A stretch of 64,000 bases of DNA from Methanomassiliicoccales archaeon LGM-DZ1 (GTDB lineage Archaea > Thermoplasmatota > Thermoplasmata > Methanomassiliicoccales > Methanomethylophilaceae). Of this stretch, positions 19,338 through 25,300 are shown piece by piece. Under the pieces are notes generated by a model. That model ran no database searches. It saw only the letters and a program-made list of their open reading frames with translations, and was not told the origin of the DNA. Numbering within the stretch: the stretch's first letter is position 1; each line of letters starts with the position of its first letter. The translations under genes were made by a program, and so were the position numbers. Location of the stretch: contig CP115556.1 of NCBI GenBank assembly GCA_030168595.1, positions 496,001 through 560,000 of the forward strand, in the 5' to 3' direction.

Positions 19338-22300
19338 GGATCATCCCAGCCTATGCGGGGACTACGATGCCTTCAGCCGCCCCGCTTCGGTGCGGGCGGG
19401 ATCACCCCCGCCTACGCGGGGACTACCCCGGCACCATCACCGATCACACCGACGCCTCGGGATCACCCCCGCCTACGCGGGGACTACCTCTAGAATTCCT
19501 CTTGCCAACTCTGAAAGTTCGGATCACCCCCGCCTACGCGGGGACTACTTTCCCTTACGCTTACGCGCTTGCGGGCGTTGCGGATCACCCCCGCCTACGC
19601 GGGGACTACGCGTCATGCTGGAGATGCGCAACATGTCCGGTAGGATCACCCCCGCCTACGCGGGGACTACCGGGTCCATACTCAACTCCACGGAGCCGAT
19701 ATAGGATCACCCCCGCCTACGCGGGGACTACCCCGCTGCCCGCCGGACCGACCAGCAGGATGATGGGATCACCCCCGCCTACGCGGGGACTACCCGTTTC
19801 GTCTTCTCATCCTGCACCAGGAGCCGGGATCACCCCCGCCTACGCGGGGACTACTCACTCCCTCCGTCGATTTTCGGCTCCCAAAGAGGATCACCCCCGC
19901 CTACGCGGGGACTACCGATATGCTCATGGACATTTTCGGCTACACCAAGGATCACCCCCGCCTACGCGGGGACTACCGATATCGATCGTGCACAGGGTCA
20001 CGCGCGCTCGGATCACCCCCGCCTACGCGGGGACTACGCGCCTTGCACGACCCCGAGCCCTTCTGCAATGGGATCACCCCCGCCTACGCGGGGACTACCC
20101 GATTATTATTGAGTTGATTTTATCTGCATAAGGATCACCCCCGCCTACGCGGGGACTACACGGCCGTAGGGCCCGACCGCCTGGGCGAGGTCCTATCACC
20201 CCCGCCTACGCGGGGACTACACAGCTTTTCCGCGGGAATGTGATCGCATTATAGGATCACCCCCGCCTACGCGGGGACTACCACCACGACATCCCGTCGG
20301 AGCACAGCATCGAGGGATCACCCCCGCCTACGCGGGGACTACCAGGGAGCTTCCGCCCTGCGACCTGGTGACCTAGGATCACCCCCGCCTACGCGGGGAC
20401 TACCGATGGGCTCGGGGGCCCATATCATGTAGAGGGGGATCACCCCCGCCTACGCGGGGACTACCCGGAGCCTCCCTGAGATAGGTCGGGATGTGCAGGA
20501 TCACCCCCGCCTACGCGGGGACTACTCCGTCGACGACGCCATCGAGACCGACATCGGCGGATCACCCCCGCCTACGCGGGGACTACATCAGGACGGACCT
20601 CTACAACCTGATGTGGAGAGGATCACCCCCGCCTACGCGGGGACTACGCAGTCGATGTCGTTTATCGTCTTGATGAGCGAGGATCACCCCCGCCTACGCG
20701 GGGACTACGTTCTTCAGGAAGTCGGCGACCGCCTGCTTCACGGATCACCCCCGCCTACGCGGGGACTACCAACCAGTTTCTTTCTGCTGTTAGCCCTACT
20801 TAGGATCACCCCCGCCTACGCGGGGACTACTATGAAAGGTATCAGCGCGACCTGTCGCCCGGAGGATCACCCCCGCCTACGCGGGGACTACCCATCCATG
20901 GGGATGTGCCTGATCAGGTCCATGGGATCACCCCCGCCTACGCGGGGACTACTCGCCGTACTTCTGATTGGAGGCGGCCTTTGCCGGATCACCCCCGCCT
21001 ACGCGGGGACTACCAGCAGTCCGCAGGCAGGGTTCCCACGGTAGACGGATCACCCCCGCCTACGCGGGGACTACCGGTCGGCGGCCCTCCAGCCTCCGTC
21101 ATAGAGGGGATCACCCCCGCCTACGCGGGGACTACTAGACATCGTTTAACGCAGTCATCAGAAGCCTAGGATCACCCCCGCCTACGCGGGGACTACGGTC
21201 TGAGGTCGATTTTAGGCAATCTAGGGCCAGGATCACCCCCGCCTACGCGGGGACTACTCCTGCCCTGCGAATCTGTCGAATGCGGACATGGGATCACCCC
21301 CGCCTACGCGGGGACTACCAATCGAGCAACACCGGAGCGCAATACGGCTTAGGATCACCCCCGCCTACGCGGGGACTACACTCGGAGCTTCCGAGTGCTG
21401 CAGTGCAGAGCGGGATCACCCCCGCCTACGCGGGGACTACCAAGCCGGGATGGTCGAAGGCATTGAACCTCGAGGATCACCCCCGCCTACGCGGGGACTA
21501 CCCGAGCGGTGAGCTCGTCATCAAGTTTCAGAGCGGATCACCCCCGCCTACGCGGGGACTACTCCCTGTCGATGAGCACGGCTCCGAGCCTCTTGGGATC
21601 ACCCCCGCCTACGCGGGGACTACTCATGTCACTGAGTCTCATTTTCATTCCTCTTAGGATCACCCCCGCCTACGCGGGGACTACGAAAGCCCTTCCCTGT
21701 GCGTCTCTCTCGACTCCGGATCACCCCCGCCTACGCGGGGACTACCCTCTGGCTCTCGATGTTGTCCCATGCGATCTGGGATCACCCCCGCCTACGCGGG
21801 GACTACCGAGGAGCGTCTGACAATGTCGGACGTTTTGCCGGATCACCCCCGCCTACGCGGGGACTACTTAGGCCCGCTGTCTCCGGTCTGACTCACCCAA
21901 GGATCACCCCCGCCTACGCGGGGACTACCCCTCCTGAACTCTCGTCTCGTGAACGATGAGCGGATCACCCCCGCCTACGCGGGGACTACTGTATGCCGAG
22001 AAGATCTCGGCGAAAACATCCCGGATCACCCCCGCCTACGCGGGGACTACCTCTACGAGGCGGCGCCGGAGTGCCTCCTGTGGGGATCACCCCCGCCTAC
22101 GCGGGGACTACTTCAGTGGGCGCGCCGCCGATGCGATTCTTTCCGGATCACCCCCGCCTACGCGGGGACTACCTGCACACCACACCGCCGTATACGGATT
22201 CCTTCGGATCACCCCCGCCTACGCGGGGACTACAAGCGAAGGTTATGTGCCACGCACATCTTCGCCGGATCACCCCCGCCTACGCGGGGACTACTCTTGA

Positions 22301-25300
22301 TCCTCACGGCCAGACATGAGATGATGGGATCACCCCCGCCTACGCGGGGACTACGCGTCGCCCAGGCTGCGGAGGTTCCCCTGCCACGGATCACCCCCGC
22401 CTACGCGGGGACTACGGAGTGAGTTTCGCATCATACTCCTCTTGGAGCGGATCACCCCCGCCTACGCGGGGACTACGATAATTGGGCGATAAATATCAAC
22501 GGGCAGTGGGGATCACCCCCGCCTACGCGGGGACTACGTACTCTTTCTCGTCGCCGTTTTTGCTGGCGTAGGATCACCCCCGCCTACGCGGGGACTACCC
22601 GACGATGGGCGCATGTACTGTACGCTTGAGGGGATCACCCCCGCCTACGCGGGGACTACCAGACATCGCCTTACGCAGTCATCCGAAGCCTAGGATCACC
22701 CCCGCCTACGCGGGGACTACCTAAACTGAACATTCGCCAACGGAATATTGCGAGGATCACCCCCGCCTACGCGGGGACTACGCGATGGCGGTGTCGTTGA
22801 TCAGCTTCCTGATGGGATCACCCCCGCCTACGCGGGGACTACGAGATCGGAGACCATCAAAGGCGAGCCTGCCGCGGATCACCCCCGCCTACGCGGGGAC
22901 TACTGCGATTCGGTGGATGTTTTTAACGATCAATGGGGATCACCCCCGCCTACGCGGGGACTACTCTTAGGGGCGCGCCCGCGATTTTCGCGCCCAGGGA
23001 TCACCCCCGCCTACGCGGGGACTACGATCTCATACCTGCCATCCCACCTGCCTGTCACCGGATCACCCCCGCCTACGCGGGGACTACCACGATAGGCTGG
23101 CTCATTCCTTTTATGTTGGAGGATCACCCCCGCCTACGCGGGGACTACCCGGCCGTACGTCGTCGTTGTCGAAGGTTTAAAGGATCACCCCCGCCTACGC
23201 GGGGACTACGTCCTGTGCCAGCTGGAAGACCTTATCGGTGACGGATCACCCCCGCCTACGCGGGGACTACTCAGTGCGCGACCTGGGCAAAAGCTACGAC
23301 ATAGGATCACCCCCGCCTACGCGGGGACTACCGGCCCAGCGCGTCCATCCGGTGACGTCGGAGCGGATCACCCCCGCCTACGCGGGGACTACGTCCTCGG
23401 CGGAGGCGCCTTCGCTATGCGGAGAGGATCACCCCCGCCTACGCGGGGACTACTCGATACGGAGCGGTCCTCCCGCACGTATTAAGGGATCACCCCCGCC
23501 TACGCGGGGACTACCTTATAAAGTGAACATCGGCGGTTGGCGTCCTAGGATCACCCCCGCCTACGCGGGGACTACACACGCGGGCAGGGATGCCCGGATG
23601 GGTGGATGGGATCACCCCCGCCTACGCGGGGACTACTGGTACCGTGCCATCCTGCAGGAATGGCCACGAGGATCACCCCCGCCTACGCGGGGACTACCTC
23701 AGAATTGAACGGCGCGTTAAAATTCAGTACGGATCACCCCCGCCTACGCGGGGACTACGCGTCGATCTCGGATTTCGCCTCTTCTTTCGCCGGATCACCC
23801 CCGCCTACGCGGGGACTACGTAATAAGGCCGTTCTCCCCAGTCCGAATGAAAGGATCACCCCCGCCTACGCGGGGACTACTTAGTAACGTTTTTATTCGT
23901 GCCCCAGGAATCGGGATCACCCCCGCCTACGCGGGGACTACAGATTAAGCCCAGAATCAGTCCGTCCGAGATCAGGATCACCCCCGCCTACGCGGGGACT
24001 ACTCCATTCGTATATAAGTTCATAAATCGGTACCGGGATCACCCCCGCCTACGCGGGGACTACCGAGGCCGACCACTGTCGCCATCAAAGCTTTGGGGAT
24101 CACCCCCGCCTACGCGGGGACTACGGGAGCCGGTGTAGCGGATGGTGCGAGTCATGCGGATCACCCCCGCCTACGCGGGGACTACATCTGCGCGGCGTAA
24201 AGGGCGCAGGGCCTGCCGGGATCACCCCCGCCTACGCGGGGACTACGGTACACCATTGCGTGCTGCGTTCTGCTTGGCCGGATCACCCCCGCCTACGCGG
24301 GGACTACGGATTCTACGACAGCGAAGGCTACGAAAAGGTGGGATCACCCCCGCCTACGCGGGGACTACATCAAGGAGCAGATCTCCTCGACGACCTACTC
24401 GGGATCACCCCCGCCTACGCGGGGACTACGCCGTCTTTGATGCTCTCGATTGCGGTGTAGAGGGATCACCCCCGCCTACGCGGGGACTACCTATGACAGC
24501 GACAAAGTGGGGTGGTTCTCCGGGGATCACCCCCGCCTACGCGGGGACTACTGGTGGTTTCGACCGCGGTGCTGGGATGGCTACGGATCACCCCCGCCTA
24601 CGCGGGGACTACTTGGTGCGGCACATGACCGCCCACTGACTGGGCGGATCACCCCCGCCTACGCGGGGACTACTACTCTCCGGAGCCACTGCATGATGCC
24701 GACGAAGGATCACCCCCGCCTACGCGGGGACTACGACGACTCGTAACTGCCCTCGATCATGCCGATCGGATCACCCCCGCCTACGCGGGGACTACTTCAA
24801 GTTGTGTATGTAGATGAACTGCTTCTCCGGATCACCCCCGCCTACGCGGGGACTACACCGTCTGCGCCGCGCCGGCCTTCTTCACATAGGGATCACCCCC
24901 GCCTACGCGGGGACTACCAGCGTGTTATGACAATGAACTCTTTTGCTGTGGGATCACCCCCGCCTACGCGGGGACTACATGTGGTGATACAATGATGTTC
25001 AAGTTCCAGACGGATCACCCCCGCCTACGCGGGGACTACTCATGCGCCATCACCACTGTCGTAGGTGTTCGGGGATCACCCCCGCCTACGCGGGGACTAC
25101 TCCAGAAACCAATCGGGGTCCAAAAGGACGTTGGGATCACCCCCGCCTACGCGGGGACTACTGGTCATCACCACGCTTGAGACCGTAAGTCCGCGGATCA
25201 CCCCCGCCTACGCGGGGACTACATGATATGATAACGGCATTCCGCGAAGCGAAAAGGATCACCCCCGCCTACGCGGGGACTACGATAGATTAAAGAGGGA

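What the first reader, a model, noticed from the sequence alone, without database searches (positions are those of the whole stretch)
21136..22692. Two spacers encode the same peptide with only synonymous differences
Spacers 21136-21168 and 22660-22692 are identical at 28 of 33 bases. Read on the plus strand from their second base, both encode RHRLTQSSEA; the differences fall at the preceding codon's third base, CGT/CGC, TTA/CTT and TCA/TCC, all synonymous within the peptide. The host thus sampled the same conserved gene position from two diverged mobile elements, at different times (25 units apart). The shared position also implies the same PAM and strand.
Basis: seen in the sequence. Interest (0 to 1): 0.72.

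Follow-up and report, generated by a model that had tools for sequence, protein, structure and literature searches.

The report
Twin spacers from diverged viral alleles
An archaeal immune memory holds two versions of the same 33-letter snippet of an unknown virus or plasmid gene, differing only where the protein would not change, which suggests it met diverged relatives of one invader twice; this is a neat case of a known behaviour rather than a new mechanism.

Summary
Spacers 21136-21168 and 22660-22692 of a 102-spacer type I-E array match at 28 of 33 bases in the same register. All five differences are silent in one open frame (RHRLTQSSEA). No other spacer pair in the array comes near, and random substitution gives an open, all-silent frame in 0.6% of trials. 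The pair occurs nowhere else in the host genome, in 146 other genomes of its order, or in the virus, phage and plasmid collections searched, so the source gene, its frame and its PAM remain unread. Indirect evidence supports the reading. Spacers of this array and two sister arrays that have viral relatives point to a PAM of 5'-AA plus the first spacer base (never A), so the pair's PAM should be AAT and the next codon TAT. The sister arrays (UBA593, COG_1) hold three more same-register diverged pairs; one is also wholly silent (DVLCFIPETL). Identical or shifted copies are absent from the three arrays. Best explanation: Cas1-Cas2 took the same PAM-defined site from diverged alleles of one element family at two times. 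Silent protospacer variation and near-duplicate spacers are published, so this is a clean new instance of a known kind.

The parts
19338..25649 (-). Type I-E CRISPR array: 28-nt repeat (plus strand GGATCACCCCCGCCTACGCGGGGACTAC; crRNA sense is the minus strand), 102 full spacers, nearly all 33 nt; oldest end at the left with a degenerate repeat at 19338-19365
21136..21168 (-). Older spacer of the pair, TAGACATCGTTTAACGCAGTCATCAGAAGCCTA on the plus strand
22660..22692 (-). Newer spacer of the pair, CAGACATCGCCTTACGCAGTCATCCGAAGCCTA on the plus strand, 25 units nearer the leader
25650..25715 (-). A/T-rich leader; reads ...AACTTTAAGT into the first repeat, like TTTAGT in the two sister arrays
25716..26015 (-). 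cas2e
   Evidence: TIGR01873, 5.6e-12
25993..26943 (-). cas1e
   Evidence: TIGR03638, 1.7e-109
26948..27601 (-). cas6e
   Evidence: TIGR01907, 3.6e-23
27577..28332 (-). cas5e
   Evidence: TIGR01868, 1.3e-45
28310..29422 (-). cas7e
   Evidence: TIGR01869, 1.4e-85
29419..30108 (-). cse2
   Evidence: TIGR02548, 3.5e-35
30008..31615 (-). cse1 (cas8e)
   Evidence: TIGR02547, 1.6e-37
31602..34013 (-). cas3
   Evidence: TIGR01587 core 1.1e-56; HD domain TIGR01596 1.2e-7 is below its curated cut-off

Best explanation
The two spacers are independent captures, by the same type I-E adaptation machinery, of one PAM-defined site in a conserved protein-coding gene of a mobile-element family, most likely a virus of methanogens of this order. 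The element lineages had diverged by silent changes. Shown: complete cas set, same register, same strand, all-silent differences, absence of the pair from the host chromosome outside the array, and the same phenomenon in two sister arrays. Inferred: the gene itself, PAM AAT (so the next codon is TAT, peptide RHRLTQSSEAY), that the source is a virus, and the time order from leader polarity. Why the exact site recurs is also inferred: Cas1-Cas2 uses some PAM sites much more than others, and an old mismatched spacer would not fully block a diverged variant but could prime new uptake from it.
For: Pair far above all other pairs of the array. All five changes silent in one open frame, null 0.6%. 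In the sister array of UBA593 (G014) a 29/33 pair is also wholly silent (DVLCFIPETL, null 1.9%); combined over the four same-register pairs of the three arrays P = 0.0014. None of the four pairs is identical or shifted. No copy outside the array in own genome, nor in the family or order genomes (the single 3-mismatch hit, in G022, lies in a short 83-aa reading frame). Several spacers of these arrays have viral relatives flanked by TT on the plus strand, giving PAM AA plus a first spacer base that is never A in this array, 0 of 102.
Against: No protospacer was found in IMG/VR, phages, plasmids or GTDB genomes. The frame is inferred from ten codons. The other two sister pairs each carry one amino-acid change in their best open frame and are uninformative on synonymy. 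Recapture at the exact site with no overlapping shifted site is somewhat unexpected under uniform PAM sampling, though only weakly so.
Confidence: 0.82

Rival explanations
1. Escape and recapture: the older spacer pressed the virus, a variant with seed changes escaped, and priming by the mismatched old spacer led to capture of the mutated site itself. This is a special case of the main explanation with a causal link between the two spacers.
For: Counting from the PAM, each of the four same-register pairs has one difference at a paired seed position (8 in this pair; 7, 1 and 7 in the sister pairs). [quoted passage not shown] coli I-E (PMC13122317). No identical or shifted copies in these arrays.
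Against: Hand estimate of the chance that all four pairs hit the seed is about 0.10. Five differences, four of them outside the seed, look like population divergence rather than one escape step. Priming normally draws spacers from many sites.
Confidence: 0.25
2. The newer spacer is a duplicate of the older one inside the array that drifted by mutation.
For: Same array, same strand, same register.
Against: Neighbouring spacers are not duplicated. The repeats between the two are intact, so 5 changes in 33 bases is too much drift. Drift in an array would rarely be silent in a reading frame (0.6%).
Confidence: 0.04
3. The shared sequence is a conserved structural or regulatory DNA site and the silent pattern is chance.
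For: The source is unknown; the chance of the silent pattern is 0.6%, not zero.
Against: A second wholly silent pair in a sister array; recognisable spacer targets of these arrays fall in genes such as terminase.
Confidence: 0.06

Closest known systems
Silent protospacer variation in hot-spring viral lysozyme genes (Heidelberg et al. 2009, PMC2612747)
   Same: One conserved coding position, nucleotide differences silent or conservative at the protein level, interpreted as host-virus co-evolution.
   Different: There the variants were seen in virus reads against one spacer; here both variants are stored as spacers in one host array and no virus is in hand.
Near-identical spacers sp59 and sp63 of Ca. 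Methanomassiliicoccus intestinalis (PMC6336856)
   Same: Same archaeal order, near-duplicate spacers in one array.
   Different: Type I-B array; one mismatch plus a one-base length difference; no frame analysis in the passage read.
Repeated capture of one protospacer in primed type I-C adaptation in Legionella (PMC5071653)
   Same: Two independent acquisitions of the same protospacer.
   Different: Identical source plasmid in the laboratory, no allelic divergence.
E. coli type I-E adaptation
   Same: Full cas3-cse1-cse2-cas7-cas5-cas6-cas1-cas2 set; 33-nt unit whose first base comes from the PAM (general knowledge of I-E).
   Different: The first base varies (never A) instead of the fixed G of AAG, so the repeat reads as 28 nt with a 33-nt spacer.

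Membership tests
Type I-E CRISPR-Cas | cse1 and cse2 signature genes with cas3, cas7, cas5, cas6e, cas1e, cas2e | tested here: met
   All eight found; the Cas3 helicase core passes its cut-off, the HD domain match is weak
Type I-E CRISPR-Cas | 28-29-nt palindromic repeat and 32-33-nt spacers | tested here: met
Type I-E CRISPR-Cas | AAG-type PAM whose last base enters the array | tested here: inconclusive
   AA plus a variable non-A base, inferred from homologous rather than identical targets
Repeat capture of one protospacer from diverged alleles | Same register and strand, diverged sequence, same array | tested here: met
Repeat capture of one protospacer from diverged alleles | Differences follow coding constraint | tested here: met
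   0.6% null for this pair, 0.0014 combined over four pairs
Repeat capture of one protospacer from diverged alleles | Protospacers found in two related elements with a PAM | tested here: inconclusive
   No source found in the collections searched
Array-internal spacer duplication | Neighbouring units duplicated together, or copies identical | tested here: not met

The most novel reading that the evidence does not exclude
In this genus, type I-E adaptation preferentially re-captures the very protospacer that an older, now mismatched spacer targets, updating an outdated memory in place rather than drawing new spacers from elsewhere on the variant. Four same-register diverged pairs, no shifted overlaps in the three arrays and a seed difference in every pair fit this, but do not show it.
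Probability: 0.1. Interest if true: 0.65.

Novelty: new member of a known kind. Interest (0 to 1): 0.36.

Why it matters
Same-register pairs with silent differences let an array serve as a small dated record of allele turnover in an invader never sequenced: they give the reading frame, a conserved peptide and a PAM prediction that can be used to recognise the unknown virus. With four pairs in three sister arrays, the question whether old mismatched spacers steer recapture of the same site becomes countable. The mechanism itself is expected from known CRISPR biology.

Tried and rejected
Exact and degenerate DNA and peptide patterns against IMG/VR, GTDB genomes, and 29 whole records of related viruses: nothing. 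The degenerate IMG/VR and GTDB scans for the pair had no positive control and returned no chance hits either, so their negatives carry less weight. BLAST of the newer spacer against phages and plasmids, and of all 102 spacers against phages: nothing real. A three-mismatch hit in G022 was rejected: it lies in a short 83-aa reading frame and changes the peptide. PHROGs search with the padded peptide: nothing, as expected for ten residues. Provirus stretches of nine related genomes fetched through terminase: no protospacer of the pair. The peptide of the sister pair, DVLCFIPETL, also had no viral match. Internal PAM avoidance in spacers as the reason for the exact register: counts at or slightly below shuffled, not decisive. 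The minus-strand reading with an in-frame TAG (pyrrolysine is used in this order) has one K/R change and is less parsimonious.

Full report
What is there. The window carries a type I-E CRISPR-Cas locus: cas3, cse1, cse2, cas7, cas5, cas6e, cas1 and cas2e on the minus strand, an A/T-rich leader, and an array of 102 full spacers that is transcribed on the minus strand and ages towards the left, where the last repeat is degenerate. The genome is a single contig of 1.77 Mb.

The pair. Spacers 21136-21168 and 22660-22692 agree at 28 of 33 bases, in the same register and on the same strand. The best other pair in the array is no better than a chance alignment. Only one of six frames is open in both, and it gives RHRLTQSSEA in both. 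The five differences are all silent there, including the two-base TTA/CTT leucine change. Simulated sets of five substitutions give an open, all-silent frame in about 0.6% of trials.

Source. The pair is not found outside the array in its own genome, with up to three mismatches, nor in the other genomes of the family and order. It is not in IMG/VR, the phage and plasmid collections, or the GTDB genomes at the sensitivities available. The degenerate IMG/VR and GTDB scans had no positive control, which limits those negatives. Metagenomes, where viruses of uncultured methanogens mostly sit, could not be searched.

PAM. The last plus-strand base of the spacer is never T in this array (0 of 102), never T in the UBA593 array (0 of 49) and T once in 64 in the COG_1 array. 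Arrays of other genera in the order mostly have a 29-nt repeat and 32-nt spacers. This suggests that in this genus the first crRNA-sense base of the 33-nt unit is the last PAM base and is variable but not A. Spacers with recognisable viral relatives agree. A UBA593 spacer matches the terminase peptide (I/V)DPAAK in many related viral contigs, and another matches a CRCTT peptide. Spacer 25101-25133 of this array (NVLLDPDWFL) and a COG_1 spacer match neighbouring stretches of one gene of L042. All these are followed by TT on the plus strand, so the PAM reads AA then the first spacer base. For the pair this predicts PAM AAT and the plus-strand continuation GCC TAT T, that is RHRLTQSSEAY. These targets are homologues, not exact protospacers, so the PAM is well supported but not proven.

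The phenomenon repeats. In 503 spacers of 13 type I-E arrays from the order, five related pairs stand out: four at exactly the same register, all in the three arrays of this genus, and one shifted by five bases in another genus. None is identical. One of the sister pairs (29/33) is also wholly silent, peptide DVLCFIPETL, with a null of 1.9%. The remaining two (31/33 and 30/33) have one amino-acid change in their best frame and are uninformative. Over the four pairs, so low a number of amino-acid changes has P = 0.0014 under random substitution. This argues against drift of duplicated spacers and makes the coding reading of the window pair stronger than on its own.

How it works, most likely. 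The host met diverged members of one element family at least twice, and each time Cas1-Cas2 took the same PAM-defined site. The gene was under purifying selection, so the alleles differ silently. Absence of identical copies fits immunity: a perfectly matching spacer hinders a second infection by the same allele. Why the same site was taken, with no overlapping shifted captures, is open. Strong preferences among sites, known in E. coli I-E (PMC6282206, abstract seen), are sufficient. A causal link through priming by the old, mismatched spacer is possible: every same-register pair has a difference in the paired seed, but by hand estimate that has a chance of about 0.10, and four-to-none over shifted sites about 0.03 given the PAM density in related viruses.

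Known or new. Silent variation of protospacers in viral populations was reported in 2009, near-identical spacers in a Methanomassiliicoccales array in 2019, and repeat capture of one protospacer in the laboratory. What this adds is both alleles stored in one host array with wholly silent differences, and recurrence in sister arrays. It is a new, tidy member of a known kind.

Noticed in passing
window 19399-25649: The PAM-side base of the 33-nt unit is never A in crRNA sense (0 of 102), suggesting an AAB PAM with a variable last base stored in the array, unlike the fixed G of E. coli.
   Followed up: yes
L144 and L145: Three further same-register diverged spacer pairs in sister type I-E arrays (31/33, 30/33, 29/33); the 29/33 pair is wholly silent in one frame (DVLCFIPETL).
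   Followed up: partly
L182, spacers 0 and 7 of the array at 8609: Two spacers share 22 bases exactly but are shifted by five bases and differ beyond; the only clear shifted overlap seen in 503 spacers.
   Followed up: no
window 20193-20220: One repeat inside the array has changed bases at its start (CTATCACC...), while nearly all others are identical.
   Followed up: no
window 25101-25133; L042 3277-3471: A spacer of this array and spacers of the COG_1 array match neighbouring stretches of one viral gene whose product has a CNRGCYFC motif, resembling radical-SAM proteins; no Pfam match.
   Followed up: partly
L185, L186, L193: Contigs binned as Bacillota, Firmicutes or Spirochaetales carry type I-E arrays with repeats almost identical to this archaeon's, either shared by transfer or misbinned.
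   Followed up: no
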